Made by a program: the position numbers and the translations under genes. A DNA stretch of 64,000 nt from Ensifer sp. LC163 (GTDB lineage Bacteria; Pseudomonadota; Alphaproteobacteria; Rhizobiales; Rhizobiaceae), in assembly GCF_001695855.1 (NCBI RefSeq), contig NZ_MBSS01000005.1:62001-126000 (forward strand). Reading direction: 5' to 3'. The notes below the pieces were generated by a model. The model saw only the letters and a program-made list of their open reading frames with translations, was not told the origin of the DNA and made no database searches. Shown piece by piece: positions 41,749 to 61,593 of the stretch. Each line of letters starts with the position of its first letter. The first letter of the stretch is position 1.

Positions 41749-41782
41749 GCGCATTCCCCTTTTTTGATATTCGCTTCGATTG

Positions 41783-43195: not shown

Positions 43196-43324
43196 ATAGA
43201 TATTTTACGGTGGCGCGCAAGCGCGAAATGAACGAAAAGAATCATTGCCGGATGCGCATGATTTGTTCGCTATCCGGAAAAGACGGGGCAAGAGCTGATG
43301 ACGGCACCCAGGCGAAGGAACGAC

Positions 43325-44041
43325 ATGGCCGCATTCGAGGACGGACCGGTGCCACGCTACGAGGCGGTGAAGCAGTTCATCCGCACCCGCATCGACAGCG
43401 GGGAATGGCCGGCACATCACCGCATCCCTTCCGAAAACGAGATCGTCGCCGATCTCGGCGTCAGCCGCATGACTGCGAACCGGGCGCTGCGAGAGCTGGC
43501 GACCGAAGGCGCGATCACCCGCGTTCAGGGGGTCGGGTCCTTCGTCGCGGCACACAAGGGCAGCACCGCACTTCTGGAGGTGCGCAATATTGCCGACGAG
43601 ATCCGTGAACGCGGCCATGCGCACACCTCGCGCATGACGCTGATGCAGGAAGAGGTGGCGCCTTCGGAAATCGGCTATGCGCTCGGGCTTGCGACGGGAG
43701 CCCGGGTATTCCATTCGATCATGGTCCATTCGGAAAACGGCCTGCCGATCCAGATCGAAGACCGGTTCGTCAACCCGGCCATCTGCCCGAAATATATGGA
43801 GCAGGATTTTCGCGACATGACGCCGAACGCCTATCTGACGGCGGTCGCACCGATCACCCGTACCGAACAGATCGTCGAGGCGGTCTCGCCGCAACCTTGG
43901 GAATGCAAGCTGCTCGGCATCGATCGTAACGAGCCCTGCCTGATGATCCGGCGTCGCACCTGGTCCGACACTGCCAATGTGACGACGGCGCGCCTTCTTT
44001 ATCCTGGAACGCGTTATCGCCTTGAAGGTGTGTCGCAATAG
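43325..44041 (+). CDS. hutC: Histidine utilisation repressor HutC (GntR/UTRA)
   Basis: Transcriptional repressor usually released by urocanate. The protein has an N-terminal winged helix (RIPSENEIVADLGVSRMTANRALREL) and a C-terminal UTRA ligand domain (GARVFHSIMVHSENGLPIQIEDRF, then the HutC signature TEQIVEAVSPQPWECKLLGI and CLMIRRRTWS). ATG at 43325 has AAGGA in place and gives 238 residues; an ATG at 43298 gives 247. Divergent from the hut operon. Confidence 0.92.
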   Translation: MAAFEDGPVPRYEAVKQFIRTRIDSGEWPAHHRIPSENEIVADLGVSRMTANRALRELATEGAITRVQGVGSFVAAHKGSTALLEVRNIADEIRERGHAHTSRMTLMQEEVAPSEIGYALGLATGARVFHSIMVHSENGLPIQIEDRFVNPAICPKYMEQDFRDMTPNAYLTAVAPITRTEQIVEAVSPQPWECKLLGIDRNEPCLMIRRRTWSDTANVTTARLLYPGTRYRLEGVSQ

Positions 44042-44104: not shown

Positions 44105-47032
44105 ATGGTTGAAGACGCGCTGAAGCTTCGCACGCAGCTGCCAAGGCCCGATGTGACGTCTGAGGACGCGTCGCGCATTCTTTCGGAGCATTTCGGCCTC
44201 TCCGGCGCCTTGACCGAACTGGGAAGCCAGCAGGATCGCAACTATCGGATCGACACCGGCGAGGCGCGGTTCGTGCTGAAGATCTGCCAGGCGGCCTATG
44301 ACCTGCAGGAGCTGCAGGCCCAGAACGCCGCCTTGCTGCATCTCGCCCGCCAGGCCGGCTCGGTGCGGGCGTCGCAGGTCGTGCGCGCGCTCGACGGCAA
44401 CGACATCGTCGAGGTGACGGTGCGCGGCGAGGCCTATCGCGTTCGTCTGCTGACCTATCTCGATGGCGTGCCGCTGACGCGGCGCAAGTATCTGGCGGCG
44501 GAAACGGTGGCTGCACTCGGCGACATCGCCGGGCGGCTGGCGGTGGCGCTCCGTGATTTCGATCATCCGGGCCTTGACCGTGAACTGCAATGGGACCTGC
44601 GGCACGCCGCACCGGTCGCACTGCACCTGCTTGCCGCCATGACCGACGAGGGCCTGAAGAAACGAATTGCCGAGGCCATGGTCGGGGCCATGCGCCGGCT
44701 TCAACCCCTGACAGCCGATCTGCGCATCCAGGCCATCCACCACGACGTCACCGACGACAATGTCGTTGGTCAGCCGGATACCGCCGGCAGACCGATCCCG
44801 GATGGCGTCATTGATTTCGGCGATATTCTGAAGGGCTGGCTCGTCGCCGAACTGGCGGTCACCTGCGCCTCGCTGCTGCACCATGCCGATGGCGATCCTC
44901 TCTTCATTCTGCCGGCCGTCCGGGCCTTTCACGCGGTCTGCCCGCTTGAGGAAAGCGAACTGAAGGCGTTGTGGCCGTTGATCGTCGCGCGCGCCGCGGT
45001 CCTGGTCGCCAGTTCCGAACAGCAGCTCACCATCGACCCCGACAACGCCTATGTGCAGGGCAACGCCGCGCATGAGCGCGAGATCTTCGACGTTGCCGTC
45101 TCCGTGCGGCCGGCCCTGATGCAACATGCGATCTTGCGTGCCGTCGATGCGGCACCGGAGGCGACGACGCCGGTGGTCGGCGAGGGACTGCTCATCGAGA
45201 TAGAGCCGGCCGGCGTGCGCCAGATCGATCTTTCGATCCTGAGCCCCTTGCTTCCCGAGGAGCGCTGGCAGCACGATGGCCTTCCAACCTCGCTGCTGCA
45301 GACGGCGGCGCATGCGATCGGCATGGCGTCGACCCGCTATGGCGAGTATCGGCTGACCGAGAGCACGCTTCGGGCATCGACGCCGGCGCCAACCTTCGCG
45401 CTGCATGTCGATCTCTGCCTGCCGACCGGCACCGTCGTCAGGGCACCTTTTGCCGGCCGAACCGAATGGCATGACGGGCGGATGGTCCTGAACGGTCCTT
45501 CAGTGGTTCTCCACCTCTCCGGTCTCGAGCCGCCTGAAGATACGGATGAGACCGTCGCCGCCGGCATGCCGATCGGCGTGGCGGTCGAGGCCGGCCACGG
45601 GCTCGGCCTGATGCGGGTGCAGCTCTGCCGCGAGCCGGGGCTGATTCCACCGCTGTTTGCTCCGGCCCGCCAGGCGGACGCCTGGCGCGTGCTCTGCCCG
45701 TCACCATCAGGCATCCTCGGATTCGACTGCGATGCGCCCAGGCCCCATGCTGCCGACCTCCTTGATCGCCGTCAGCAGCATTTCGCCAAGCCGCAGAAGA
45801 ACTACTACCGCACGCCGCCGCAGATCGAGCGCGGCTGGAAGGAGCACCTGTTCGACGTCGAGGGCCGGGCCTATCTCGACATGGTCAACAACGTCACCAT
45901 CCTTGGCCACGGACATCCGCGGCTGGCGGCCGCGGTCGGCCGGCAATGGTCGCTGCTCAACACCAATTCGCGTTTCCACTATGCCTCGGTCGCCGAGTTT
46001 TCCGAACGGCTTGCAGCACTTGCGCCTGATGGCCTCGATACGGTCTTCCTCGTCAACAGCGGCTCGGAAGCCAACGATCTCGCCTTGCGGCTTGCCTGGG
46101 CCTTTTCCGGCCAGCGCAACGTCGTCAGCCTGCTCGAAGCCTATCACGGCTGGACGGTGGCGAGCGACGCGGTCTCGACCTCGATCGCCGACAATCCGCA
46201 GGCACTCAGCACCCGTCCCGACTGGGTGCATGCGGTGGTGGCGCCCAACACCTATCGTGGCCCGTTCCGGGGATCCGACACGACCGACAATTATGTGCGA
46301 TCGGTGGCGACCAAGCTGCGCGAACTGGAGGACGGGGGCCAAGGCCTTGCCGGTTTCATCTGCGAGCCGGTCTATGGCAATGCCGGCGGCATTCCCCTGC
46401 CGAAAGGCTACCTCGACGCCGTCTATGCCATGGTCCGGCAGCGCGGCGGCGTCTGCATCGCCGATGAGGTGCAGGTCGGCTACAGCAGGCTCGGGGACTA
46501 TTTCTGGGGGTTTGAGGAGCAGGGCGTGGTGCCCGATATTATCACCGTCGCCAAGGGCATGGGCAATGGCCATCCGCTCGGGGCCGTCATCACCCGGCGC
46601 GAGATTGCCGACGCGTTGGAGAAGGAAGGCTATTTCTTCTCGTCGTCTGGCGGCAGTCCGGTCAGTTCCGTCGTTGGGCTCACGGTGCTCGATCTTCTCG
46701 AAGAGGAGAAACTGCAGGAGAATGCGCGTGTCGTCGGCGGCTACCTCAAGACGAGGCTCGAAGCGCTGGAACAGCGCTTTCCGCTCGTCGGCGCCGTGCA
46801 CGGCATGGGGCTTTATCTCGGCGTCGAGTTCGTCCGCGATCGCGAAACGCTGGAACCGGCAACGGAAGAGACCGCTGCCATCTGCGATCGTCTCCTTGAA
46901 CTCGGTGTCATCATGCAGCCGACCGGCGACCATCTGAACGTCTTGAAGATCAAGCCGCCGCTCTGCCTCAGCCGGGAAAGCGCTGACTTCTTCGCCGACA
47001 TGCTGACACGGGTCCTGGAGGAGGGCTGGTAG
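44105..47032 (+). CDS. Kinase / M23-like / class-III PLP enzyme fusion (975 residues)
   Basis: Three domains in one chain. Residues about 20-330: aminoglycoside-phosphotransferase/hydroxylysine-kinase-like fold with catalytic loop IHHDVTDDN (His212-Asp214-Asn219) and VIDFGD. Residues about 400-560: remnant of a LytM/M23 domain in which the metal ligands are lost (Ala432 for the first His, LMRVQL for HLHLQL; Asp436 kept). Residues about 575-975: class-III aminotransferase fold with PLP Lys817 in TVAKGMGNGHP. Kinase plus class-III enzyme is the pair of human hydroxylysine kinase and phospho-hydroxylysine phospho-lyase, so phosphorylation of an amino alcohol followed by phosphate elimination is inferred. 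A paralogue lies at 58537. Confidence 0.85.
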   Translation: MVEDALKLRTQLPRPDVTSEDASRILSEHFGLSGALTELGSQQDRNYRIDTGEARFVLKICQAAYDLQELQAQNAALLHLARQAGSVRASQVVRALDGNDIVEVTVRGEAYRVRLLTYLDGVPLTRRKYLAAETVAALGDIAGRLAVALRDFDHPGLDRELQWDLRHAAPVALHLLAAMTDEGLKKRIAEAMVGAMRRLQPLTADLRIQAIHHDVTDDNVVGQPDTAGRPIPDGVIDFGDILKGWLVAELAVTCASLLHHADGDPLFILPAVRAFHAVCPLEESELKALWPLIVARAAVLVASSEQQLTIDPDNAYVQGNAAHEREIFDVAVSVRPALMQHAILRAVDAAPEATTPVVGEGLLIEIEPAGVRQIDLSILSPLLPEERWQHDGLPTSLLQTAAHAIGMASTRYGEYRLTESTLRASTPAPTFALHVDLCLPTGTVVRAPFAGRTEWHDGRMVLNGPSVVLHLSGLEPPEDTDETVAAGMPIGVAVEAGHGLGLMRVQLCREPGLIPPLFAPARQADAWRVLCPSPSGILGFDCDAPRPHAADLLDRRQQHFAKPQKNYYRTPPQIERGWKEHLFDVEGRAYLDMVNNVTILGHGHPRLAAAVGRQWSLLNTNSRFHYASVAEFSERLAALAPDGLDTVFLVNSGSEANDLALRLAWAFSGQRNVVSLLEAYHGWTVASDAVSTSIADNPQALSTRPDWVHAVVAPNTYRGPFRGSDTTDNYVRSVATKLRELEDGGQGLAGFICEPVYGNAGGIPLPKGYLDAVYAMVRQRGGVCIADEVQVGYSRLGDYFWGFEEQGVVPDIITVAKGMGNGHPLGAVITRREIADALEKEGYFFSSSGGSPVSSVVGLTVLDLLEEEKLQENARVVGGYLKTRLEALEQRFPLVGAVHGMGLYLGVEFVRDRETLEPATEETAAICDRLLELGVIMQPTGDHLNVLKIKPPLCLSRESADFFADMLTRVLEEGW

Positions 47033-47058
47033 GGAGCAGTCCCGCCGACGGAGATCTC

Positions 47059-48378
47059 TTACCAGCCGGCGAAGTCGGCGAGCACCGCGTCGGAAACGCG
47101 GCCGGCTGCGACATCGCCCAAAGCGCGGTCGAGGATGTCGAGCGCCCGGTCGATGTCCGTGTCCGATATGGTCAGCGGCGGCGTCATTTCCAGCACATTG
47201 GCGTTCATGCCGACATAATAGACGACGAGGCCGAGTTCATAGGCGCGGTAGATCAGCTTGGCGGTTTCTCGCGCTGCCGGCGCCCGGCTGTTGCGGTCGG
47301 CAATCAGCTCCACCCCCGAGGCCAGGCCGCGTCCGCGCACGTCGCCGATCAGGGCGTGGCGCCCGGAAAGGTGGCGCAGGCCTTCGCGCAGGCGCTCGCC
47401 CTTTCGGTGGGCGGCCTCGACCAGACCCTCCCGGTCGATGGTTTCGAGCACGGCAAGGCCGGCGGCCGTCGAGACCGGGTTGCCATGCAGGGTCTGCATC
47501 GCAAAGGCCGTGGCGCAGTCCATGATCTCGGCCGGGCCGATCGCTGCCGAAAGCGGCAGCCCGCCGCCGAGCCCTTTACCGATCGTCAGGATATCGGGCA
47601 CGAAGTCCTCGTGCTCGAAGCAATGCATCCTGCCGCTGCGGCCGAGCCCGACCTTGACCTCGTCGCAGACGACGAGAATGCCGTGTTGCCGGCACAGGTC
47701 GGTGAATTTTTTGAAGAACCCCTCCGGCGGCACGATCAGCCCACCGTCCGACTGGATCGGCTCGATGAAGGCGCAGCCGATCTGTTCCGGGGTCGCGGTC
47801 GTTGCGAACCGCTGTTTCAGGAGGTCGAGGATCGCGTCGCCGGTGACATCACCCTGGTAGGGTCGATAGGGGTCGGGGTAGGGCAGCAGGATCAGGCCTT
47901 CCGCCTTGGCCGCGCCCGCCTGGACGCTATGGCCGGAAAAGGCCATCGAGCCGGTGGTGCAGCCGTGATAGGCGCCGACAAAGGAAATGACGCCGGTGCG
48001 GCCGGTGGCCTTCGCGATCGCCCGGAAGACCACCTCGTTGGCGTCCGAGCCGGAATGGCCGAACCAGACCTTGCTTCGTCCCTTGCCAGGGAAAAGGCTG
48101 AGCAGTTTTTCCGCAAGAGCGGTCGCCGGTGCGTTGGCGGCGGACAAAACGCTTGCGCCCGCCGGGTTGGCGACGGCCCGCGATACGGCCTCGACGAGTG
48201 CGGGATGGCCATAGCCAAGGCTCGCAGCACCCCACGCACCGGAAAAATCGATCAGCTCGCGACCGTTCTCCTCCATGAGGCGTGCGCCGCGGCCGCCAGC
48301 GATGGCGAGTGGAAAGAAACGCAGCTTCTGCAGGCCGGCAATCGCCTGTCCGTCCCTGGCGTAGAGGCCTTCGGTCAC
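47059..48378 (-). CDS. Class-III aspartate aminotransferase family protein
   Basis: PLP transaminase of the 4-aminobutyrate/diamine type (439 residues). Landmarks: GSDANEVVFRAIAKATGR, GAYHGCTTGSMAFSGH, FIEPIQSDGG, VCDEVKVGLGRSG and PLP lysine in TIGKGLGGGLPLSA. A GTG at 48378 overlaps the stop of the upstream amidohydrolase gene in a GTGA and has GGGGAG in place, so it is preferred to a TTG at 48411. Substrate is likely an omega-amine; partner genes are the glutamine-synthetase-like and amidohydrolase genes of the same operon. Confidence 0.87.
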   Translation of the reverse strand: MTEGLYARDGQAIAGLQKLRFFPLAIAGGRGARLMEENGRELIDFSGAWGAASLGYGHPALVEAVSRAVANPAGASVLSAANAPATALAEKLLSLFPGKGRSKVWFGHSGSDANEVVFRAIAKATGRTGVISFVGAYHGCTTGSMAFSGHSVQAGAAKAEGLILLPYPDPYRPYQGDVTGDAILDLLKQRFATTATPEQIGCAFIEPIQSDGGLIVPPEGFFKKFTDLCRQHGILVVCDEVKVGLGRSGRMHCFEHEDFVPDILTIGKGLGGGLPLSAAIGPAEIMDCATAFAMQTLHGNPVSTAAGLAVLETIDREGLVEAAHRKGERLREGLRHLSGRHALIGDVRGRGLASGVELIADRNSRAPAARETAKLIYRAYELGLVVYYVGMNANVLEMTPPLTISDTDIDRALDILDRALGDVAAGRVSDAVLADFAGW

Positions 48379-49196
48379 CGGCGGCACTCCCCAAGACTCG
48401 TCTGGAGACAACGGGTCAGTCGCTCGCCCCAGGCTGTGACGCCGGTATCGGTATCGATCAGGTCATGCCTGACTTCGATCAGCACGCCCGGCAGCTTGCG
48501 CGCGTCGGCATGCACCGGCACTGTATAGTCCTCGTCCGGATGAATATTGTAGGGCTCGTTGTCGCCGATCGTCAGCTGCTCTTCGGTGCTCAAGTCCCGG
48601 ATCAAAGACTGCGCGAAAGCCTCGGCGTCACGATAGAGAATACCCGCCTGCCACGGCCGTGGCTTGCCGAAATAGACCGGGGTGAAGCTGTGCACGCCGA
48701 CGACGAACGGCCGCTCGCCTTTCGCTTCGAGCAGGTCGAGGCGTCGGGAAACCGCGTCGGCGAAGGGCGTGAACAGCGTATCAATCCGCTGCTTTCGCTC
48801 CGCTTCAGTGAGATCCCTGTTTGCCGGGATCTCCGTCGTTTCGCTCACTTGCGGAATGAAGGACGGCGCCGAAAGCGGGCGGTTGCAGTCGATCACCAGC
48901 CTTGAATAGTTGGTGAAGAACAGCGGCGCGTCGAGGCTGAGGCTCAAATGCTGAGCGAGCGCTAAGGCCCCGATGTCCCAGGCGATATGGCGCCGGCGCT
49001 CGTGTTCGGGCAGGCCCATGTCGTCGAGTGCACGCGGCATGCGGTTGGACGCATGCTCGCATAAAAGCAGGAACGGCGATTTTCCGTCCGGATTGAACAC
49101 CGCATAGGGCGGCGGCTCGTCGATCGCCAGAAGCGGCTGGCGAGGGTCGTGCCGTCCGTGTCGGTCGGGGCTCTTGATGGCCGTTGTCGAAGTCAT
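48375..49196 (-). CDS. N-formylglutamate amidohydrolase family protein
   Basis: Zn hydrolase of the FGase family (273 residues) with LLLCEHASNRMPRAL, HIAWDIGALALAQHLS, RLVIDCNRP and GVHSFTPVYFGKPRPW. True FGase (HutG2) would finish histidine breakdown by cutting the formylglutamate made by HutF, 7 kb away. In this operon it lies between a transaminase and a glutamine-synthetase-like gene, so hydrolysis of a gamma-glutamyl or other N-acyl intermediate is equally possible. Confidence 0.85.
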   Translation of the reverse strand: MTSTTAIKSPDRHGRHDPRQPLLAIDEPPPYAVFNPDGKSPFLLLCEHASNRMPRALDDMGLPEHERRRHIAWDIGALALAQHLSLSLDAPLFFTNYSRLVIDCNRPLSAPSFIPQVSETTEIPANRDLTEAERKQRIDTLFTPFADAVSRRLDLLEAKGERPFVVGVHSFTPVYFGKPRPWQAGILYRDAEAFAQSLIRDLSTEEQLTIGDNEPYNIHPDEDYTVPVHADARKLPGVLIEVRHDLIDTDTGVTAWGERLTRCLQTSLGECRR

Positions 49197-49211
49197 GGGA
49201 GCCTATCCGTA

Positions 49212-50558
49212 TCAGTAGACGGCCGCGTAGCGGGCGCAGAGTTCGTCGGGAGAGAGGCCATCGACGATCTCGATTTCCTTGCGCTTCATCGCGACGTAGC
49301 AATCGAGGAAGTCCTTGGCGAACCAGCCAGTCACCACCGTGTCTTCGGCAAGTGTTTCGAGCGCTTCCGGCAGGCTTGCAGGCAGGCGGCGGATGCCGAG
49401 CTTCTTCTGGTCCTCGTCGGAGAAATCGGAGGGATCCGAGTTGATCAGCGGCGGCTGTTCGAGGCCGGCCCTGATGCCTTCGAGACCGGCCCTCAGCAGG
49501 ACGGCCAGCGACAGGTGCGGGCTGGCGCAGGCGTCGGCGGCGCGGTACTCCATGTTGAACTGCTTGGCCGGGTTGCTGCCGGGCAGGTCGAGCGTCGGAC
49601 AGATCCTGAGCGTCGCCTCGCGGTTCTTCTCGCCAAGGCAGGTATAGGCAGCGCTCCAGTGGTGCGGAACGAGGCGCATGTAGGACAGCACCGACGGGGC
49701 GGTGAAGGCGGTCAGCGCCGGCAGGTGGCGGATGACGCCGGCGGCGAAGGATCCGGCGACCTTCGACAGGCGACCGGGGCGCGAGGCGTCGAAGGTGACG
49801 GGGCTGCCGTCGAGATCGGTAAAGCTGACATGCAGGTGCACGCCGTTGCCGACGCCGTTGGCACTCGTCTTCGGTGCGAAGCTGGCGTTCCAGCGGAAGA
49901 GGGCGGCCACTTCCTTGGTGACGGCGCGGATCGTCGCGCCGCGATCGGCCGCGGTCAGCGCATCCGCCGGGCGGCAGGTGATCTCAAACTGGTCCTTGCC
50001 GTATTCCGGCAGGAACATTTCCGGGTCGGCGCCCGCTTCCTGCAGCGCCGCCATCAACAGCGGGCCGAAGGGTTCGGCACGGCGCTGGGCGCGCAGGCCG
50101 AAGGACGGCGCGTCGGGCCAGTCGACGCCGAGAAGCTGGAACTCCTGCTCGACGGCGGAGATGACTTTCAGGCCGGCCTCGCGCTCGAACTCTTGAAGCG
50201 TGCGCTTGAGGAAGCTGCGTACGCAGCACTCCCAAGGGTCGCCTTTGAGGTCGGTGATATCGGAATGATAGAAATGCAGCGGCGTGACGTCGGGCAGGCA
50301 GGTGATGCGCGCCTTGCTGGCGGGGTCGGCCATCAGTCGGAGGTCGCCGGCCGAGCCCCAGGGATTGTTCTCGGCGATCTGGTCGAAGGGCGTCAGCGCC
50401 AGATTGGCCGGCACCCAGCCGACGCCCTTGCGCAGATAGTCGTCGATCTGCGAGGCGGCGAAGCTGCGGCCGCGGGTGATGCCGGCGATGTCGGTGGTGA
50501 CGAAGGTCGCGAGTTCCGTCAGCGCGGAATGAGCCTTGCCGTTGTTGTTCTCGGTCAT
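49212..50558 (-). CDS. Glutamine synthetase family protein (PuuA-like gamma-glutamyl ligase)
   Basis: ATP-dependent ligase of the GlnA fold, 448 residues. Active-site strands are present: ISAVEQEFQLLGV, the metal/ammonia pocket NGVGNGVHLHVSF, CLGEKNREATLRI and NMEYRAADACASPHL. It lacks the adenylylation segment of housekeeping GlnA and resembles PuuA and methylglutamate-type ligases that join glutamate to an amine. ATG at 50558 has GAGGGG upstream. It lies in an operon with an isochorismatase-like hydrolase. Confidence 0.85.
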   Translation of the reverse strand: MTENNNGKAHSALTELATFVTTDIAGITRGRSFAASQIDDYLRKGVGWVPANLALTPFDQIAENNPWGSAGDLRLMADPASKARITCLPDVTPLHFYHSDITDLKGDPWECCVRSFLKRTLQEFEREAGLKVISAVEQEFQLLGVDWPDAPSFGLRAQRRAEPFGPLLMAALQEAGADPEMFLPEYGKDQFEITCRPADALTAADRGATIRAVTKEVAALFRWNASFAPKTSANGVGNGVHLHVSFTDLDGSPVTFDASRPGRLSKVAGSFAAGVIRHLPALTAFTAPSVLSYMRLVPHHWSAAYTCLGEKNREATLRICPTLDLPGSNPAKQFNMEYRAADACASPHLSLAVLLRAGLEGIRAGLEQPPLINSDPSDFSDEDQKKLGIRRLPASLPEALETLAEDTVVTGWFAKDFLDCYVAMKRKEIEIVDGLSPDELCARYAAVY

Positions 50559-50594
50559 GAATTCCCCTCTTGTCTCAAGATTTTCGACGGCGGC

Positions 50595-51257
50595 TCAGGC
50601 TTGGCGCAGGCCATGAAGGCGGTTGACGACGGTGTCTGTATCGGTGGTCCAGCAGTAGCCGGAATAGGCGCGAAGGGCACCTTCGTGGCGCTCGGGGCTG
50701 TAGGTCGCGCAGGCGTCGTTGACGACGGTAACGAGATAGCCGCGGTCGGCGGCGTCGCGCACGGCCATGTCGACGCACTGGTCGGTGATGACGCCGGCGA
50801 TGATCAGGTAGCGGGTGTTGAGGTTGCGCAGGATGTAGTCGATGTTGGTGGAGTTGAAGACGCCGGAAGACGTCTTCGGCAGCACGATCTCGTTGTCTAC
50901 AGGCGCCAGTTCGGGAATGACCTGGCCCTCGGGCGAGCCCTTCGGCACATGCATGTCGGACAGCTTGTGGTCGAGCGAGCGGTCGCGGCCGTCAAGCGTC
51001 AGGCTCTCGATGACGGTGTGCAGCACTTCGCAACCGGCCTTGCGCGCGGCTTCGAGGATGCGGACCTGGTTTGGGATGACGGTCTGGCGCAGCCGCTTGT
51101 GATAGTAGCTGTCGGCGTCCTGCGGATGGGTCGGATCAAGATTGGGTTCGCACCAGATGCGCTGCATGTCGACGAACAGCACGGAGGTGCGGCCGCGCTC
51201 GTAGTCGCTGTCGCGTCTTAGCATGTCGTCCCCGACCTTTACTGTAACGGCACTCAT
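50595..51257 (-). CDS. Isochorismatase-like cysteine hydrolase
   Basis: Cysteine amidohydrolase fold, 220 residues. The catalytic triad is intact: Asp in LFVDMQRIW, Lys in VLPKTSSGVFNST and Cys in AGVITDQCVDMAVRDA. Members cleave amides such as carbamoyl-, maleamyl- or nicotinamide-type compounds. The ATG at 51257 has GAGGAGA upstream. It is probably the first or second gene of the minus-strand operon after the RpiR gene. Confidence 0.85.
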   Translation of the reverse strand: MSAVTVKVGDDMLRRDSDYERGRTSVLFVDMQRIWCEPNLDPTHPQDADSYYHKRLRQTVIPNQVRILEAARKAGCEVLHTVIESLTLDGRDRSLDHKLSDMHVPKGSPEGQVIPELAPVDNEIVLPKTSSGVFNSTNIDYILRNLNTRYLIIAGVITDQCVDMAVRDAADRGYLVTVVNDACATYSPERHEGALRAYSGYCWTTDTDTVVNRLHGLRQA

Positions 51258-51300
51258 TGGGATTCTCCTCGGTTGTGGTTTTTGCCTTTCGGCAAGCGTG

Positions 51301-52182
51301 TCAGCGGCCGTCGTCGACGTTCGGGTTGAGGGCATCTTCGGTGATGGCGTAGCCGCGTCGCAGCTCCTCCATCTTCTCGATGCGGGCGCGTGATTGGGTG
51401 GCGAGACGGGCCGTCAGCGCGGCGATCAGCGCTTCGGTCTGGGCGATGGCCGGCACCATCGTGTCATAGGGCGAGACGGTGTCGACCGGTGCCGTCAGCG
51501 TGACGGTGGCAAAATCGGCGATCGGCGAAAGCCAGCGGTCGGTGAACAGCACGATGCGTGCGCCCTGTGCGGCCGCCCGCCGGGCGAAGCGAATGGTGTC
51601 GTTCTGGTAGCGGCGGTAATCGTAGACGAAGAGCACGTCGCGTTTGCCGAGATCGACGAGCTGGTCGACCTGATCGGCCTGGCTGCCGTTGATCCAGCGG
51701 GTGTCGCCGCGCAGCTGCTTCATATGCGACCAGAGCAGGCCGGCGAGAAAGCCGCTGAAACGGCCGCCGAGGCAATGGACGCGGGCGCTCGTGTCGGCGG
51801 CCGCATCGACCGCTGCCTCAAAATCCTCCGAGGGCAACATCTGCATCGAGGATTCGAGTGCATGGATGCTGGCGCGCAGGAAGTATTGGTAGAAATTTTC
51901 CTGCTCCAGCGACGGACGGCGCTCGTCCAGCATCGACAGCGGCGAACTCATGCGCTCCTGCACTTCGCCGAGCAGCGCCTGTTGAAACTCAGGATAACCC
52001 TCGAAACCAAGCTTGTTGGCAAAGCGCACGACGGTCGGATTGCTGACCCCCGCCGACGAGGCCAGATAGGCAACGGTATTCAGTCCCGCCGCCGGATAGT
52101 TCGACAGGAGCTGCCGCACGATCTTCAGTTCCGATCGCGTGAAGGTAATAGCCCCTTCAGTCAGTCGATCCCGGATTGCCAC
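51301..52182 (-). CDS. MurR/RpiR family transcriptional regulator
   Basis: One-domain HTH_6 (residues about 1-80, GLNTVAYLASSAGVSNPTVV with FANKLGFEGYPEFQ) and a SIS sugar-isomerase-like ligand domain (VHCLGGRFSGFLAGLLWSHM, DVLFVYDYRRYQNDTIRFAR). The start GTG at 52182 is preferred since GGGAGG lies eight bases before it; longer frames to 52278 run into the promoter. It sits between the catabolic operon and the divergent ABC operon, so it most likely controls both. Confidence 0.87.
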   Translation of the reverse strand: MAIRDRLTEGAITFTRSELKIVRQLLSNYPAAGLNTVAYLASSAGVSNPTVVRFANKLGFEGYPEFQQALLGEVQERMSSPLSMLDERRPSLEQENFYQYFLRASIHALESSMQMLPSEDFEAAVDAAADTSARVHCLGGRFSGFLAGLLWSHMKQLRGDTRWINGSQADQVDQLVDLGKRDVLFVYDYRRYQNDTIRFARRAAAQGARIVLFTDRWLSPIADFATVTLTAPVDTVSPYDTMVPAIAQTEALIAALTARLATQSRARIEKMEELRRGYAITEDALNPNVDDGR

Positions 52183-52360
52183 GATTTCCGCCTCCCAAAA
52201 ATGATGGCTTGAACCCCAGTTTCTAATTTTTGTTACATAATTGCTAGCAGAGAATGTTTTTTGAAACAAGATTGACATTTGATCGAGAAGAGATAACTTT
52301 CATTTCGGGAACTGGCCCGAGCCAAAAACAACGGCGGGCCGACAATTCGGGGGAATGCAG

Positions 52361-54238: not shown

Positions 54239-54272
54239 TCAGCAAACGAAATCAGAAAGAGGGAGCTTACCG

Positions 54273-55436
54273 ATGAAATCGAACCTTAGGGCCCTGTGCC
54301 TCACCACCGTACTTAGCGGCTTCGTGCTGTCGCCACTGCCGGCGCTTGCCGAGGACTTGGTCATCGGCCTTGCCACCGCCCAGACCGGCGGCCTTGCTCC
54401 CTACGACCAGCCGTCGCTGAAGGGCCTGGAGATGGCTGTCGAGGAAATCAACGCGGCCGGGGGCGCTGCCGGCAAGTTCCCGATCAAGCTGGTGGCCAAG
54501 GATACCCGCTCCGACGCCGCCCAGACGGCGCTGGTGGCGCAGGAGCTGGTCGATCAGGGTGTCAAGATCATGATCACGCCCTGCGATGCCGATCCGTCGA
54601 TCGCCGCCGGCCAGGTGACGCAGGCAGCGCAAATCCCGGCCTTCTCGTTCTGCGCCACGACCCCGACCATGCCGCTTGCCGTCGGCGATTACATGTTCGG
54701 CAACTATCCCGCCGACAACGTCCAGGCCTCGGTGCTTGCTACCTACGCCGTCGAGAAGGGCTACAAGAAGGCCTATATCCTCAAGTCTCCTGACAGCGCC
54801 TATACGCTGAAGCTTCCGGAATATTTCGGCGAAGCCTTCAAGGCCAAGGGCGGTGAGCTTCTCGGCGAAGGCACGTTCAGCATGGGCCAGCAGGATTTCG
54901 GCGCCGAAGTCACCAAGATCAAGGCGATGAACCCGGCGCCCGATGTCATCATGACCGCTGCCTACGAGCCCGATTTCCCGGCCTTCATCCGCCAGCTGCG
55001 CGGTGCTGGCGTGACCATCCCGATCCTCGGCAGCGACGGCATCGACTCGCCGACGACCTTCGGCCTTGGCGCCACCGTCGACGGCGTGGTCTTCACCACG
55101 GCCGGCTTTGCCAGTGAAGGCAGCCCGCTCGCCGACTTCAATGTCAAGTACAAGGAAAAGTTCGGCCAAGTGCCGGATACCGTCTACATCGCCAACGGCT
55201 ACGATCTCGGCAAGGTCATCGACGCAGCGGTGACCGAAGCCAACAGCATCGACCCGGTCGCCATCCGCAACGCCATCGCCTCGCTCGAAAACGTCCAGGG
55301 CGTTACCGGCCCGATCAGCTATGCCGGCACGCAAGGCATGCCGTTGCGCTCGGTCTCGCTGGTCCGCATCGAAGGCGGCAACCGCGAACTGATCAGCCAG
55401 GGCGTTCCGGCCGCGGCCGATATTCCGGCCCCCTGA
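54273..55436 (+). CDS. Branched-chain-type ABC transporter substrate-binding protein
   Basis: Periplasmic binding protein of the LivJ/Peripla_BP_6 class, 387 residues, signal peptide MKSNLRALCLTTVLSGFVLS with cleavage after ALA. Landmarks: IGLATAQTGGLAPYDQPSLKG, LVAKDTRSDAAQTALVAQEL, ITPCDADPSIAAGQV, and YVANGYD-type end. Ligand cannot be told from sequence; the neighbouring enzymes suggest an amino compound. Second gene of the transport operon. Confidence 0.9.
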   Translation: MKSNLRALCLTTVLSGFVLSPLPALAEDLVIGLATAQTGGLAPYDQPSLKGLEMAVEEINAAGGAAGKFPIKLVAKDTRSDAAQTALVAQELVDQGVKIMITPCDADPSIAAGQVTQAAQIPAFSFCATTPTMPLAVGDYMFGNYPADNVQASVLATYAVEKGYKKAYILKSPDSAYTLKLPEYFGEAFKAKGGELLGEGTFSMGQQDFGAEVTKIKAMNPAPDVIMTAAYEPDFPAFIRQLRGAGVTIPILGSDGIDSPTTFGLGATVDGVVFTTAGFASEGSPLADFNVKYKEKFGQVPDTVYIANGYDLGKVIDAAVTEANSIDPVAIRNAIASLENVQGVTGPISYAGTQGMPLRSVSLVRIEGGNRELISQGVPAAADIPAP

Positions 55437-55527
55437 ACCGTCGCCGCTTGCGGTCTCCGGCAAGGGTGCCGGAGATCGATCGGCCGCAACTGGCCGCTTC
55501 GCAATCCATGGCAAGGACTTTGCCCCG

Positions 55528-56265
55528 ATGATGCACAGTGAAATTCCAGCTCAGAAGCCCTTGCTCGAGGTCAGCGGCCTTAAGGTCGCCTATGGTGCCG
55601 TCGAGGCGTTGAAGGGCGTCGATCTCACCGTCGGCAAGGGACAGATCGTCACGCTGCTCGGTGCCAACGGTGCCGGCAAGAGCTCGACGCTGAATGCACT
55701 GGTGGGCCTGGCGGCAAAGAAGGCGGGGCGGGTTTCCTTCAACGGCCAGGACATTTCCGGCCTGCCGCCGGAACAGATCGTCAGGCTCGGCATGACGCTG
55801 ACGCCGGAAGGCCGACGCATCTTTCCAAGCCTGACGGTGGACGAACACCTGTTGCTCGGCGGCGCCATGCACAAGGCGCGCGGCGCGATCTCCGACGTGC
55901 GCGAAGACATGCTGTCACGCTTCCCGATCCTGAAGGAGCGCCTCGGCCAGAAGGCGGGTTCGCTCTCCGGGGGCGAGCAGCAGATGCTGGCAATCGCCCG
56001 CTCGATGATGTCGTCGCCCGACCTGCTGCTGCTCGACGAACCGTCGCTTGGCCTCGCGCCGCAGGTGGTCGATCTGATCTTCGACCTGATCGCCGGTCTG
56101 CGCCAGAAAGGTCTGACGATCCTGCTCGTCGAGCAGAACGTCGCGCTTTCGCTTGAAATCGCCGACGCCGGCTATGTCATGGCGAACGGACGCATCGTGC
56201 TCTCCGGCACCGCCGCCGAGCTTCGCAACTCAACCGAAATCCAGGGTGCCTATCTCGGCGCTTGA
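55528..56265 (+). CDS. livF: Branched-chain-type ABC transporter ATPase LivF
   Basis: 245-residue LivF with Walker A GANGAGKSS, signature LSGGEQQMLAIARSMM and LLLDEPSLGLAPQVV, ending in the typical LRNSTEIQGAYLGA. Third gene of the operon; livH follows 25 bases later. Confidence 0.92.
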   Translation: MMHSEIPAQKPLLEVSGLKVAYGAVEALKGVDLTVGKGQIVTLLGANGAGKSSTLNALVGLAAKKAGRVSFNGQDISGLPPEQIVRLGMTLTPEGRRIFPSLTVDEHLLLGGAMHKARGAISDVREDMLSRFPILKERLGQKAGSLSGGEQQMLAIARSMMSSPDLLLLDEPSLGLAPQVVDLIFDLIAGLRQKGLTILLVEQNVALSLEIADAGYVMANGRIVLSGTAAELRNSTEIQGAYLGA

Positions 56266-56290
56266 GGCCGGGGGCAAAGAGGTCACAACG

Positions 56291-57178
56291 ATGGACATGT
56301 TCCTGCAGCAGCTGGTCAACGCGCTGAGCCTCGGCGGCACCTATGCGCTTCTCGCGCTTGGGCTCGCGGTCGTCTTCTCGATCATGGGGCTGATCAATTT
56401 CGCCCATGGCGAACTGATGACGGCGGCCGGCTACGGCTTATGTTTCGCCCTGCTGCTGGGCCTGCCGTTCCCGCTCGCCATCTTCGGCGCGCTGATGATT
56501 GCCGTAGTGCTCGCCATGCTGATGGAGCGCGTCGCCTTCCGGCCGGTGCGCGGTGCCAGCGGCACGACGCTGCTTCTCACCAGCTTTGCCGTCAGCGCCA
56601 TCCTGCGCGTCATCTTCCAGAATTTCATTTCGGCGCGGCCGAAACCGGTGCCGATGCCGGAGAGCTTTTCCGGAACGATCGAGATCGGCGGTCTCCATCT
56701 CGGCCTCATCCAGGGCACGTCGATCCTTGTCACCGTCATCATGCTCGTCGGGCTCAACCTCTTCCTGCGCACGACCGTTCTCGGTCGGGCGATGCGCGCG
56801 GCGTCTGAGGATTTCGCCATCGTCCGGCTGATGGGCATTCGCGCCAATGCCGTGGTGGCGACTGCCTTTGCGATTTCCGGCCTGCTGGCGGGTGTGGCAG
56901 GCATTCTCTGGGTGGCGCAACGCGGCAGCGTCGATCCGCTGATGGGTTTCCTGCCGGTGTTGAAGGCTTTCATCGCCGCGATCATCGGCGGGCTCGGCAG
57001 CCTTTCCGGTGCCGTTGCCGGCGGCTTCCTGCTCGGCTTCATCGAGGTGTTCCTGCAGGCCTATCTGCCCGAAAGCCTGCTCAGCTACCGCGATGCCTTC
57101 ACCATCCTGCTCGTCATCGGCGTGCTTCTCTTCGCGCCGCAGGGGCTGCTTGCGCGCAAGACGATCGTCAAGCTCTGA
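56291..57178 (+). CDS. livH: Branched-chain-type ABC transporter permease LivH
   Basis: 295-residue permease with eight helices. Landmarks: NALSLGGTYALLALGLAVVF, INFAHGELMTAAGYG and the LivH C-terminal loop FKAFIAAIIGGLGSLSGAVAGGF. ATG at 56291 has AAAGAGG upstream. It completes the HAAT importer with the fused LivMG, binding protein and LivF. Confidence 0.92.
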   Translation: MDMFLQQLVNALSLGGTYALLALGLAVVFSIMGLINFAHGELMTAAGYGLCFALLLGLPFPLAIFGALMIAVVLAMLMERVAFRPVRGASGTTLLLTSFAVSAILRVIFQNFISARPKPVPMPESFSGTIEIGGLHLGLIQGTSILVTVIMLVGLNLFLRTTVLGRAMRAASEDFAIVRLMGIRANAVVATAFAISGLLAGVAGILWVAQRGSVDPLMGFLPVLKAFIAAIIGGLGSLSGAVAGGFLLGFIEVFLQAYLPESLLSYRDAFTILLVIGVLLFAPQGLLARKTIVKL

Positions 57179-57208
57179 TCGCCAGAGCGATCATTTCAAC
57201 TCGAAAGC

Positions 57209-57240
57209 AAAGGCCGTGAGGGTTTTCTCTCGCGGCCTTT
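57209..57240 (+). terminator. Rho-independent terminator after livH
   Basis: AAAGGCCGTGAG / CTCGCGGCCTTT with TTT loop and following T-rich bases. Confidence 0.85.
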
Positions 57241-57362
57241 GCATTTGCTTGAAGGGTATTCTTTCCGGCGAATGCCCTGTGGCGACGAACCGGTCCAAGG
57301 AACGCAAGCGCGGGGCGGGCGCACCGCTTGCCGTCGCCGACGATTGCGCCGGGTGCCAACAC

Positions 57363-57396
57363 AAAAAAAACGCCGCGGGGAGGAGCCCGCGGCGTT
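57363..57396 (-). terminator. Rho-independent terminator of the binding-protein gene at 57417
   Basis: Minus-strand reading AACGCCGCGGG / CCCGCGGCGTT followed by eight T; 20 bases past the stop. Confidence 0.9.
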
Positions 57397-57416
57397 CGAT
57401 GGCGTGGAGCGTGCAA

Positions 57417-58427
57417 TCAGCGCGCCGGCGGCGCGTACATCAGACCGCCCTGGCTCCACAGCTTGTTGAGGCCGCGGTCGATCTTGAGCGCGCTGTCCTT
57501 GCCGAGATGTTTTTCGAAAACCTCGCCGTAGTTGCCGACGGCGGAGATCGCCTGGAAGGCCCATGTCGGACCGAGGCCCAGCGCCTTGCCGGCCTCGTTG
57601 TCGATGCCGAGAAAGCGCTTCTGGCCGACGGTGCCGCTTTCCTGCAGCTTGGCGGCGTTCTCCTTGGTGATGCCCAGCTCTTCGGCTTCGATCATCGCGA
57701 ACAATGTCCAGCGCACGACCTTGAACCACTGCTCGTCACCCTGGCGAACGGCCGGTCCGAGCGGTTCCTTCGAGATGACTTCGGGCAGCACGACGAAGCG
57801 GTCCGGGTCGTTCAGTGTCAGGCGCTGGGCGTAGAGCGCCGAGGCGTCGGTCGAATAGACGTCGCAACGTGCGGTGTTGAAGGCCTGGACCGTCTGGTCG
57901 GGCTTTTCAAACGCGATGACCTGGTACTGGATGTTGTTAGAGCTGAAGTAGTCGGCCATGTTCTGCTCGGTGGTCGTGCCGGTTTCCGTGCAGATGGAGG
58001 CACCCGAGAGTTCCTTGACGCTCTTCACGCCGAGGTCGTTACGCACCATGAAGGCTTGGCCGTCATAGTAGTTGACGCCGACGAAGCTCATGCCGAGATC
58101 GCTGTCGCGCGACAGCGTCCAGGTGGTCTGGCGCGACAGCAGATCGACTTCGCCCGACTGCAACGCGGTGAAGCGCTCCTTGGTCGAGAGCGGCACATAT
58201 TTCACCTTGTCCGGGTTGCCGAGCGCGGCGGCGGCGACCGCGCGGCAGAAGTCGATGTCGAAGCCGCTCCATTCGCCCTTATCGTTCGGCGCGGAAAAGC
58301 CGAGCACGCCCTGGCTGACGCCACAGCGGAGTTCACCGCGTTCCTTGACGACATCGAGCGTGGCAGCGCTGGCTGCCGTTCCGGCGAGAAATGCCGCACT
58401 GGCAAGTGCTAGAATTCCTGATTTCAT
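57417..58427 (-). CDS. Polar amino acid ABC transporter binding protein, AapJ-like
   Basis: Periplasmic binding protein of the SBP_bac_3 class, 336 residues, signal peptide ending in AASA. Landmarks: RGELRCGVSQGVLGFSAPND, WSGFDIDFCRAVAAAALG, SICTETGTTTEQNM and YAVRQGDEQW-like. It is closest to AapJ of the general L-amino-acid transporter, but no permease or ATPase of that type is in the window, so it is an orphan that must use a transporter coded elsewhere or serve as a sensor. Confidence 0.88.
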   Translation of the reverse strand: MKSGILALASAAFLAGTAASAATLDVVKERGELRCGVSQGVLGFSAPNDKGEWSGFDIDFCRAVAAAALGNPDKVKYVPLSTKERFTALQSGEVDLLSRQTTWTLSRDSDLGMSFVGVNYYDGQAFMVRNDLGVKSVKELSGASICTETGTTTEQNMADYFSSNNIQYQVIAFEKPDQTVQAFNTARCDVYSTDASALYAQRLTLNDPDRFVVLPEVISKEPLGPAVRQGDEQWFKVVRWTLFAMIEAEELGITKENAAKLQESGTVGQKRFLGIDNEAGKALGLGPTWAFQAISAVGNYGEVFEKHLGKDSALKIDRGLNKLWSQGGLMYAPPAR

Positions 58428-58536
58428 TGTCCTGTTCTCCTCTTGTTATGCTGTTATGAAGGCATGCGTCTTCGATGCCGGGGCGCGTGCGCGTCCCGGC
58501 CAACTGGTTTTGGTTTCGGCGTTGTTCTGCTCGACC

Positions 58537-61500
58537 TCAGCCGAGCTTCTTGCTCACATCCGCAAAGGTCTCCTCGAGAACCGCGAGCAGATGGTCGGCA
58601 TCGCGCTTCGAGAAGATCATCGGCGGGCGCATCTTCAAGACGTTGTCATGCGGCCCTTCGGTGCCCATCAGTACGCCGCGCTGGCGTGCGCCGTTGGAAA
58701 CCGCCCGGGCAAATTCGGTGGCGGGCGCCTTGGTCTTGCGATCGCTGACCAGTTCGATGCCGAGGAACAGCCCCATGCCACGGACGTCGCCGATCACCTC
58801 GTAACGCGCCTGCATCGCACGGAAGGAGTTGATGAGATAGTTGCCGATGGCAAATGCGTTGCCGCGCAGGTCCTGGCCCTCGATGACGTCGAGCACCGCA
58901 AGGCCGACGGCGCAGGAAACCGGGTTTCCGCCGAAAGTGTTGAAGTACTCCATACCGTTGTTGAAGCTGTCGGTGACCTCGCGGGTGGTGACGACGGCCG
59001 CCAGCGGATGGCCGTCGCCGATCGGCTTGCCCATGGTGACGATGTCGGGAACCACGCCCTGGGTCTCGAAGGCCCACCAATGGCTGCCGACACGGCCGAA
59101 GCCGACCTGGACCTCGTCGGCGATGCAGACGCCGCCGGCATCGCGCACCAGGCGATAGACTTCCTTGAGGTAGCCATCGGGCAGGAACACCTGGCCGGCG
59201 ACGCTCGGGATCGATTCCGCGATGAAGAAGCCGAGGCCCTCGCCCTTCGCCTGCATGGCGGCGATCTGTTCGGCGACGCTTTCGGCAAAACGCTTGCCGT
59301 GTTCCTCGGCCGGCCAGTCGGCGGGCGCGCGATAGCTGTCGGGAACGGCAGCGACATGGACATGCGGCTTCGGGCCCTTGCCGCCCTTGCGACGGAATTT
59401 GTAGGGGCTGATGTCGATCAGCTCCTGCGTCGTGCCGTGATAGGACCAGTCGAGCGTAATCGCATTTTCGCGGCCCGTATGCGTGCGCATCAGGCGCAGC
59501 GCCAGGCTGTTGGCCTCCGAGCCGCTGTTGACGAAGCCGGCGACCGTCAACTCCCCAGGTAGCGTCGCCGTCAGCCGTTCGGCATAGGCGACGATGTTGT
59601 CGTGCAGATAGCGGGTATTGGTGTTGAGGATCGCCGCCTGCTTGGCCATCGCCTCGACGACTGCGGGATGGGCGTGGCCGATGTGGCAGACATTGTTGAA
59701 GCAGTCGAGATAGGCGCGGCCGCTGTCGTCGATCAGCCAGACACCTTCGCCGCGCACGAACTTGATCGGCTTCTCGTAGGAGATCGACAGGTTCGGCAGC
59801 AGCAATTCCTTGCGCAGCTTGACGATCTCGTCATGCGCACGACCGCTCTTGGTATAAAACTCCTCGGCAATGCCGGCAAAGGTGCGCGCATCGGGGAAGA
59901 GTTCGCCCCAGACGTCGAGATATTGCGGTTCGCCGACGCCGAGGATTTCGGTCGCCGAAAGGCTGGTATCGATCGAAAGCTGCAGGTGCAGGTGCGGCGC
60001 CCAGCCGCCGTTCTCCTTTGGGGCACCCATTTCACCGACGAGCGCGCCGGCTTCCAGCCTGTCGCCAGCCTTGATCCGGCCCATCGCCTCGTGCGCCAGA
60101 TGACCCCAGAGCGACACGAAGGGCGGGCAGCCCTCCGGCTCGTGACGAAGCGCAATCAGGCAACCGTAACCGAGCGGGTCTTTTTCGATCTCGACGCTGA
60201 CGACAGTGGCGGCGATCGGCGTGAACACCTTGGTGCCGGCCGCCATGAACAGGTCGAGCCCGAGATGGCAGGTACGGCGGGTATTCTCGATCAGCCGCGA
60301 GACGAACATCTCGCCGGAATAGACGGTGCGGGGCTCGCCCCAGGGGCCGACGCCGAGATCGATGCCGTTCTCGCGGCAATAGTCTTCCCAGATCGCCTGC
60401 GCTTCATCCGGTTGTTCGCCGGCGGATTTCACCGTCATCGGATGGTTCGGGTCGCCATAGGGCACGAGGGCTGCTGGATAGGTCGCGGCCGGGCGTTCGA
60501 GCAGCGGCGCAAGCGTCTTGCGGTTGCCGGCGATCCAGGCAGTAACGCCATGCGCGCCGGGGGCTGCCGCAAAGCCGCAGGCCTTGCGCAGGATCGCGGT
60601 GGCGAAGCGTGGGTTCATCCGGTCGAGCTTGCGCAACAGCGTCCAGGCCGGCTTTTCGCTGATGGCGAGATAGGGGTTGTCGGCCGTGTGGGCGCGACGC
60701 GAGGCCGAGATTGTCACCGAGGTGACGAGCCGCATGGCGATGAGGTCGAAGAGCAGATCGACTTCTTCCTCGAGCAGCGGATATTCCGTGTGGTAGCCGC
60801 GGGCGATCGCGGCCGTGGCGCCGATCGGATCGGGATGGTCGAGACCGGCATAGGCGGCCGCGATTGCAACCTCGGCGATGACGGGCGCATAGAGCGCGTC
60901 GCCGAAGTCGATCAGCCCGGAGATGCGGTCATGATCGGCCTTGTCGACGAGCACGTTCCAGTCGTTGGCGTCGTTGTGGATGACGGCCGAACGCAGCGTC
61001 GCCAGTTTCGGCTCCACCGTCCTCGCAAAGCGGGCAAGAAAACGCTCGAGCATCGCCCGGTCTTCAGGGGCCGCAACATGGCCCAGCCTGTCCTTGGAAC
61101 GGCCGGCCCTGCGAATGTCCCAGTCGAGGTCGCGCAGCGCGCCCGGATGCATGAAGCCTTTCAACGCGGCGTCGAAGCGGCCAAGCATTTGGCCGAGCGA
61201 TTGGAGCGCGCCGGCGCTGCGACCGGTTTCGGCGAGCGGGACACCCGACACCCAGCTGACGAGACGCAGCCTGTGGCGGACGCCGTGGGCGCTGGTGGTT
61301 TCGGCAAGGCTGCTGCCGGCCAATGTCGGCCGGATGTGCGGCACCGGCAATTCGGCGGCAAAGGTTCCGACATGGTTGAGCAGCGCCGTCTGGAAGTCGC
61401 TCTCGACCTCGGGCTCGGCGGCATTGACAATCTTCAGGATATAGGTGGCACCGTCTGCGGCCTCGACCTTGAAGTTCTGGTCGCGTTCGCTGGCGAGCAG

Positions 61501-61593
61501 CGAAAGCGTACCGGAAAGGCCGTAATGCTGCTGGAGCAGTCCCGCAGCCTGGTCGATGGAAAAGTCTGGTGTCGTCTTCAGCATATCGTTCAT
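58537..61593 (-). CDS. Kinase / LytM-M23 / class-III PLP enzyme fusion (1018 residues)
   Basis: Same three-domain plan as the gene at 44105. Residues about 15-330: APH/hydroxylysine-kinase-like domain with IHNDANDWN and LIDFGDALY. Residues about 420-560: M23 domain with complete metal ligands His443-Asp447 (HLGLD) and His534/His536 (HLHLQ). Residues about 600-1010: class-III aminotransferase fold with PLP Lys856 in [18 protein letters not shown] at 61593 has GAGGG upstream; longer frames lack one. It is divergent from an Lrp regulator gene with a perfect dyad in the intergenic region. Reaction inferred: kinase plus phospho-lyase. Confidence 0.86.

What the first reader, a model, noticed from the sequence alone, without database searches (positions are those of the whole stretch)
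44105..61593. Two kinase / M23-like / class-III PLP enzyme giant fusions bracket one catabolic island
Seen: genes at 44105-47032 (975 residues) and 58537-61593 (1018 residues) share the order APH-type kinase, LytM-like domain, class-III aminotransferase fold, all with intact kinase (HHDxxxxN or HNDxxxxN) and PLP-lysine motifs. Known: hydroxylysine kinase (APH fold) and phospho-hydroxylysine or phospho-ethanolamine phospho-lyase (class III) act in sequence. Inferred: each protein phosphorylates an amino alcohol or hydroxy amino acid and then eliminates phosphate and ammonia, channelling the intermediate. Two diverged copies in one locus with two kinds of amino-acid uptake protein suggest two related substrates.
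Basis: partly seen in the sequence, partly recalled or inferred. Interest (0 to 1): 0.78.

Follow-up and report, generated by a model that had tools for sequence, protein, structure and literature searches.

The report
Two differently specialised kinase–phospho-lyase fusions
Two very large bacterial enzymes that probably break down hydroxylated amines, by adding a phosphate and then splitting it off, sit in one locus; gene neighbours of relatives suggest that one of them uses hydroxylysine, a modified amino acid of collagen, while the other has turned to a different substrate.

Summary
Both fusions are real: 44105-47032 (+, FUS1, 975 aa) and 58537-61593 (minus strand, FUS2, 1018 aa). Each matches, over its whole length, a known NCBIfam family without assigned function (PRK06149, PRK06148). 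Kinase and PLP motifs are intact, and the PLP domains are nearest to phospho-lyases (human ETNPPL), so 'phosphorylate, then eliminate' fits but is untested. New here: (1) the M23/LytM domain is intact in FUS2 (89 of 89 relatives aligned) and dead in FUS1 (0 of 161 keep the first zinc His); the lyase pocket motif differs too. (2) Fusions close to FUS2 sit with beta-galactosidases of three families, an MGH1/GH63-like glycosidase, L-piperidine-6-carboxylate dehydrogenase or saccharopine-type genes, which points to (glycosyl)hydroxylysine; one FUS2-class gene lies in such an operon, most do not. (3) FUS1 has varied neighbours (hut, purU, agmatine/polyamine, lysine-oxidation genes); its substrate is open. 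(4) The 'island' between the two is a module that mostly occurs without fusions; in three other Sinorhizobium/Ensifer genomes FUS1 and FUS2 are neighbours without it. Everything about function is inference from families and context.

The parts
44105..47032 (+). FUS1: kinase - dead M23-like domain - class-III PLP phospho-lyase-like fusion (PRK06149 family)
44216..44896 (+). FUS1 APH-type kinase domain (residues 38-264), HHDVTDDN motif
45323..45628 (+). FUS1 degenerate M23-like beta domain (about residues 407-508)
   Evidence: homology to FUS2 M23 domain by hhalign; first zinc His absent in 161 of 161 relatives; beta strands in the model
45821..47017 (+). FUS1 class-III PLP domain (residues 573-971)
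58537..61593 (-). FUS2: kinase - intact M23 domain - class-III PLP phospho-lyase-like fusion (PRK06148 family)
60775..61500 (-). FUS2 APH-type kinase domain, HNDANDWN motif
59971..60267 (-). FUS2 M23 domain with HLGLD, GHL and HLH ligand motifs
   Evidence: Pfam M23 44.9 bits, cut-off 28.7; five ligand positions kept in 89 of 89 FUS2-class proteins
58570..59769 (-). FUS2 class-III PLP domain
57417..58427 (-). AapJ-like amino-acid substrate-binding protein downstream of FUS2
   Evidence: SBP_bac_3; next to 8 of 17 FUS2-class loci
61720..62154 (+). Lrp/AsnC-type regulator divergent from FUS2
   Evidence: read in the ORF; annotated Lrp/AsnC beside FUS2-class genes in 4 of 4 named records read
43298..44041 (+). 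hutC repressor just upstream of FUS1, same strand
   Evidence: TIGR02018 299 bits, cut-off 220
37395..43159 (-). hutH, hutV/W/X-type transporter genes, hutF
   Evidence: hutF TIGR02022 706 bits, cut-off 413; hutH and transporter by annotation of the matching S. meliloti locus
47059..57178 (.). island between the fusions: class-III racemase-like enzyme, FGase-like amidohydrolase, glutamine-synthetase-like ligase, isochorismatase-type hydrolase, RpiR regulator, Liv-type ABC transporter
   Evidence: module seen elsewhere mostly without a fusion

Best explanation
Each fusion phosphorylates the hydroxyl of a compound ending in R-CH(OH)-CH2-NH2 with its APH-type kinase domain; its PLP domain then eliminates phosphate and ammonia and leaves the aldehyde R-CH2-CHO (inferred from the families). 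FUS2 most likely acts on 5-hydroxylysine and gives 2-aminoadipate semialdehyde, which the genome's own L-piperidine-6-carboxylate dehydrogenase could oxidise; its intact M23 domain may release hydroxylysine from imported peptides (proposal only). FUS1 is a diverged relative with a dead M23 domain and a different lyase pocket motif; it most likely handles another beta-hydroxy amine, perhaps a polyamine or guanidine compound. Shown: domains, kept and lost motifs, tree position, neighbours. Inferred: every reaction, both substrates, the role of the M23 domain, any channelling.
Against: No activity is known for either protein. Of 17 FUS2-class loci only 1 has one of the four glycosidase types nearby and none has P6C dehydrogenase; the window locus itself has none. 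FUS2 is 42% identical to the third fusion, so transfer of the substrate is uncertain. The glycosidase queries came from L116, L039/L219 and L132, so the counts are partly circular. The tree node that separates FUS1 from the rest has support 0.616 only. Human ETNPPL, an ethanolamine-phosphate enzyme, groups with the FUS2 side (0.878), and no PHYKPL or HYKK sequence was available to compare. 16 of 100 FUS1 loci have P6C dehydrogenase nearby, so lysine-type substrates are not excluded for FUS1 either.
Confidence: 0.5

Rival explanations
1. FUS2 acts on ethanolamine or isopropanolamine (phosphorylated, then split to acetaldehyde or propanal), as human ETNPPL does with phosphoethanolamine.
For: ETNPPL is the nearest solved structure for both proteins and the ISPYKF motif of ETNPPL is kept in FUS2. 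ETNPPL makes acetaldehyde, ammonium and phosphate (PMC8233209, passages).
Against: Glycosidase, P6C dehydrogenase and saccharopine-type neighbours of related fusions have no role with ethanolamine. Ethanolamine kinases belong to another Pfam family (recalled).
Confidence: 0.2
2. FUS1 and FUS2 act on two stereoisomers or derivatives of hydroxylysine, FUS1 too being a lysine-type enzyme.
For: 16 of 100 FUS1 loci carry a P6C dehydrogenase gene nearby (L159 816 bits, cut-off 730), with a pipecolate-oxidase-like gene below its cut-off (460 of 600 bits).
Against: In those loci the genes lie behind a small gene and an opposite LysR gene, not in one operon with FUS1. Other FUS1 loci have hut, purU or agmatine/polyamine neighbours. 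The pocket motif differs.
Confidence: 0.2
3. The island and the fusions form one pathway for a single compound.
For: A fusion lies beside or inside the same module in Paracoccus, L106/L224, L226, L111/L228, L113, L122 and L127, in several on the same strand.
Against: 37 of 40 fetched isochorismatase places have no fusion in the stretch (stretches reach about 10 kb each way), and FUS1 and FUS2 occur together without the island in L053, L146, L203 and L044.
Confidence: 0.2
4. The PLP domains are ordinary transaminases and the kinase domains serve something else.
For: Database names say 'aminotransferase'; fold matches to transaminases and racemases are also very high.
Against: Phospho-lyases are the nearest relatives by sequence, fold and tree; kinase and lyase genes stand side by side when unfused.
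Confidence: 0.08

Closest known systems
NCBIfam PRK06149 (NF004800) and PRK06148 (NF004799)
   Same: Whole-length matches above the curated cut-offs for FUS1 and FUS2.
   Different: Nothing; they are members. The families carry no function ('aminotransferase', 'hypothetical protein').
Human O-phosphoethanolamine phospho-lyase ETNPPL (6tor)
   Same: Nearest solved relative of both PLP domains; shares NTN[ST]R, and with FUS2 also ISPYKF.
   Different: No kinase or M23 domain; FUS1 lacks the ISPYK Lys.
Animal hydroxylysine kinase (HYKK) plus 5-phosphohydroxylysine phospho-lyase (PHYKPL)
   Same: Proposed chemistry of FUS2: kinase, then phospho-lyase, to 2-aminoadipate semialdehyde (pathway in PMC5200902, passages). 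Bacterial bi- and trifunctional fusions were, as I recall, mentioned in Veiga-da-Cunha et al. 2012; the paper is not held.
   Different: Two separate proteins in animals; no M23 domain.
Phospho-lyase A1RDF1 of Arthrobacter (5g4i)
   Same: Bacterial class-III phospho-lyase; second-best match of FUS2.
   Different: Standalone; lacks ISPYKF; groups with the unfused pair lyases in the tree. For FUS1 its fold score is tied with racemases and decarboxylases.
PbfA, (R)-1-hydroxy-2-aminoethylphosphonate ammonia-lyase
   Same: Class-III PLP lyase doing a 1,2-elimination (PMC8154272, passages).
   Different: No kinase; NCBIfam scores 195 (FUS1) and 233 (FUS2) bits, cut-off 525.

Membership tests
PRK06149 (FUS1) | whole-length match above the curated cut-off of 973 bits | tested here: met
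   1571 bits over residues 3-975
PRK06148 (FUS2) | whole-length match above the curated cut-off of 1128 bits | tested here: met
   1658 bits over profile 1-1013 of 1015
Class-III PLP phospho-lyases (ETNPPL type) | nearest solved relative is a phospho-lyase | tested here: met
   FUS2; FUS1: nearest is 6tor only, 5g4i tied with others
Class-III PLP phospho-lyases (ETNPPL type) | releases phosphate and ammonia from a phosphorylated amine | not testable with these tools
   needs an assay
Hydroxylysine kinase / phospho-lyase | APH-type kinase with intact catalytic motifs | tested here: met
Hydroxylysine kinase / phospho-lyase | sequence nearer to HYKK and PHYKPL than to other members | not tested
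   no such sequence at hand; FUS2 kinase against PDB sequences gave 0 matches at E<=0.01
Hydroxylysine kinase / phospho-lyase | acts on 5-hydroxylysine | not testable with these tools
   context only
Peptidase M23 (FUS2) | zinc ligands HxxxD and HxH, and the second active-site His | tested here: met
   HLGLD, GHL, HLH; 89 of 89 relatives; Pfam above cut-off
Peptidase M23 (FUS1) | zinc ligands HxxxD and HxH | tested here: not met
   first His in 0 of 161, last His in 1 of 161; no Pfam match in the window protein

The most novel reading that the evidence does not exclude
FUS2 and the third fusion of this genome are the core of an undescribed bacterial pathway for the collagen sugar-amino acid glucosyl-galactosyl-hydroxylysine: glycosidases strip the sugars, the M23 domain (M23 peptidases favour glycine-rich peptides, recalled) clips hydroxylysine out of collagen-type peptides, and kinase and lyase of the same chain turn it into 2-aminoadipate semialdehyde. 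FUS1 is an offshoot that kept the dead peptidase fold as a spacer and moved to hydroxylated guanidines or polyamines, for example plant hydroxyagmatines.
Probability: 0.25. Interest if true: 0.75.

Novelty: new variant of a known kind. Interest (0 to 1): 0.55.

Why it matters
Three-domain proteins of this kind are frequent in rhizobia and relatives and are named 'aminotransferase' or 'hypothetical protein'. The context found here gives testable substrates: hydroxylysine and its collagen glycosides for the FUS2 side, another amine for FUS1, and octopamine-type phenylethanolamines for the unfused pair. It also poses a clean question on domain evolution: why a peptidase fold is kept but switched off in one class and strictly conserved in the other. 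If right, kinase plus phospho-lyase would be a general bacterial way of removing the nitrogen of 1-amino-2-alcohols.

Tried and rejected
Rejected: the fusions as recent duplicates of each other (32% identical; separate branches). Rejected: LytM-like domain active in both. Rejected: island as an obligatory partner of the fusions. Left open: what the island does. Clustering its neighbours in 40 loci gave, by eye, an M20-type peptidase family in 6 loci, Lrp-type genes in 4, and a saccharopine-dehydrogenase-like gene in 2, for which no NCBIfam family appeared at E<=1e-60.

Led nowhere: FUS2 kinase domain against PDB sequences, 0 matches at E<=0.01. FUS2 M23 segment against PDB sequences, 11 matches at E<=1: 8 named M23 peptidase or lysostaphin, 1 TagE, 1 'Internal protein' (9k2v, E 2.7e-4), 1 ribosomal uL2m (E 0.27). 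The two whole-model fold searches list PLP-domain matches, so the kinase and M23 folds were not tested by fold. Ten paper searches, judged from the listings and from passages of five papers, showed no paper that tests such a fusion; one 2026 paper names, by annotation, a hydroxylysine kinase and a 4-aminobutyrate aminotransferase gene in an operon with an Lrp regulator in Herbaspirillum (PMC13275390, passages). Many subscription papers, among them Veiga-da-Cunha et al. 2012, are not held.

Limits: genes in fetched loci were called with my own script; it missed hutC in L145, which tblastn found. Neighbour names without a family search are by eye. In 6 of the 100 a further gene that looks by eye like a GH2 beta-mannosidase lies 2 to 5 genes upstream (family 41); it did not pass the filter of the glycosidase count.
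Full report
What is there. The window lies in an Ensifer-like genome (closest listed proteins are from Ensifer, 93% for FUS1 and 95% for FUS2). FUS1 (44105-47032 +) and FUS2 (58537-61593 -) both read APH kinase, middle beta domain, class-III PLP domain. Each matches one NCBIfam model over its whole length, so the architecture is already catalogued; the function is not. AlphaFold2 models have mean pLDDT 87.5 and 85.9.

The two are differently specialised. I aligned 272 long relatives, 161 FUS1-class, 89 FUS2-class and 22 others; many are near copies of one another. The kinase and PLP residues checked are kept in 161 of 161 FUS1; in FUS2-class one fragment lacks the kinase part; among the others two have Tyr for the kinase His and two fragments have gaps. 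The five M23 positions are intact in 89 of 89 FUS2-class proteins and in 18 of the 22 others; the remaining four lack the domain. In FUS1 the first His is missing in 161 of 161 and the last in 160 of 161, although the Asp is kept in 141. Profile comparison shows that FUS1's middle domain is still related to the M23 domain of FUS2 (97.2%). The Lys of ISPYKF, shared with ETNPPL, is present in 89 of 89 FUS2-class and 21 of 22 others and in 0 of 161 FUS1. That Lys cannot be needed for phospho-lyase chemistry as such, since 5g4i lacks it. So FUS2 keeps a peptidase site, FUS1 does not, and the lyase pockets differ.

What FUS2 may use. In the four named FUS2-class records read, a divergent Lrp/AsnC gene is annotated beside it, and an AapJ-like amino-acid-binding protein gene is near 8 of 17 FUS2-class loci. 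The substrate clue comes from relatives. In L116 a GH2 beta-galactosidase gene, a bifunctional fusion without M23 domain and an L-piperidine-6-carboxylate dehydrogenase gene (824 bits, cut-off 730) stand side by side, with galT, galK, aldose epimerase and a sodium symporter nearby. In L120 the GH2 and fusion genes are 3 bp apart, and a saccharopine-dehydrogenase gene and an alanine-dehydrogenase-fold gene lie about 3 to 5 kb on. L115 has the GH2 and fusion genes. The third fusion stands, in the own genome (L039 with L219), in S. meliloti pSymB (L060) and in L133, in a co-oriented block: LacI, binding protein, permease, SDR, fusion, sugar-type ABC transporter, MGH1/GH63-like glycosidase, LacI, GH42 beta-galactosidase. 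In L132 a GH1 gene lies between the permease and SDR genes. In L121 a FUS2-class gene (68% to FUS2) with AapJ is followed by the LacI (74%), binding-protein (80%), permease (70%), GH1 (62%) and SDR (59%) genes of that block.

Control. One of the four glycosidase types is found in 7 of 8 loci of the third-fusion and LacZ-linked kind, in 1 of 17 FUS2-class loci, and in 0 of 155 others (100 FUS1, 11 other fusions, 40 isochorismatase places, 4 unfused pairs). The queries came from L116, L039/L219 and L132, so those loci match by construction; L060, L133, L115, L120 and L121 do not, though the first four are relatives of the source loci. Glucose-alpha-1,2-galactose is the disaccharide on collagen hydroxylysine (PMC8626586, passages), and hydroxylysine kinase plus phospho-lyase leads to 2-aminoadipate semialdehyde, which a dehydrogenase turns into aminoadipate (PMC5200902, passages). 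The own genome has one P6C dehydrogenase gene, far from the window (C7). Hydroxylysine is the reading that fits these partners best; for FUS2 itself it is carried over from relatives.

The M23 domain. A cytosolic peptidase joined to a hydroxylysine-splitting pair could release hydroxylysine from imported peptides; the LacZ-linked fusions do without it. This is a proposal only.

FUS1. In 100 loci, at least four of them seen twice: hutC directly upstream on the same strand in 15 (L145 adds one); purU within six genes upstream in 54, directly upstream in 46; a P1-type peptidase gene in 44; a LysR gene in 20, a pipecolate-oxidase-like gene (below its cut-off where tested) in 19, and P6C dehydrogenase in 16; an amidohydrolase and potABCD-type operon in 8. 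In four genomes of another class agmatine-deiminase-type genes follow FUS1, in one with aguB between them; aguA was confirmed by family search in L101 and aguB in L099 and L048. The mixture fits a basic beta-hydroxy amine but proves none.

The island. I fetched 40 of the isochorismatase places listed; 33 of the 40 also have both the FGase-like and the ligase gene, and 3 have a fusion in the stretch (L224, L226, L228; two of these are cut by the end of the stretch). Elsewhere fusions do lie beside or inside it. In S. meliloti Ak57 (L053), S. medicae (L146) and Ensifer sp. USDA 6670 (L203) the order is hutC, FUS1, AapJ, FUS2 with no island, and in L044 the fusions are tail to tail 30 bp apart; in L142-L145, L147 and L148 no FUS2 follows FUS1. 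The bracketing is most simply an insertion of the island between neighbours, though loss elsewhere is possible.

Unfused pair. Contig C19 holds kinase and lyase genes next to each other inside a homoprotocatechuate cluster; HpaD, HpaE and HpaH are over their cut-offs and HpaB-2 is a partial match of a gene cut by the end of the stretch. Of five places with only the PLP part in the family search that I fetched, four are such pairs (L040, L135, L136, L137) and one is a 777-aa fusion (L134). Taking the nitrogen off octopamine-type amines would give 4-hydroxyphenylacetaldehyde, the entry to that pathway; this is inference.

Verdict. Nothing catalytic is shown.

Noticed in passing
L040 8710-11014 (G000:C19); L135, L136, L137: Unfused APH-type kinase gene next to a phospho-lyase-type gene inside a homoprotocatechuate (hpa) cluster: predicted catabolism of octopamine-type phenylethanolamines.
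   Followed up: partly
L039 3-12902 with L219 15210-18385 (G000:C66); L060; L133: Third fusion in a co-oriented block with two transporters, an SDR, MGH1/GH63-like and GH42 glycosidase genes: candidate locus for glycosyl-hydroxylysine use.
   Followed up: yes
window 47059-57178: RpiR / Liv-ABC / isochorismatase / FGase-like / glutamine-synthetase-like / class-III racemase-like module, recurrent in alphaproteobacterial genomes, function unknown; the racemase-like protein resembles alpha-amino-epsilon-caprolactam racemases.
   Followed up: partly
L167-L217 (many Rhizobium FUS1 loci): purU (formyltetrahydrofolate deformylase) lies just upstream of FUS1 on the same strand in 46 of 100 loci; no explanation found.
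   Followed up: no
L134 8774-11107: A 777-aa kinase + lyase fusion without M23 domain in a Rhizobiaceae genome; its lyase groups with the unfused pair lyases and 5g4i in the tree.
   Followed up: no
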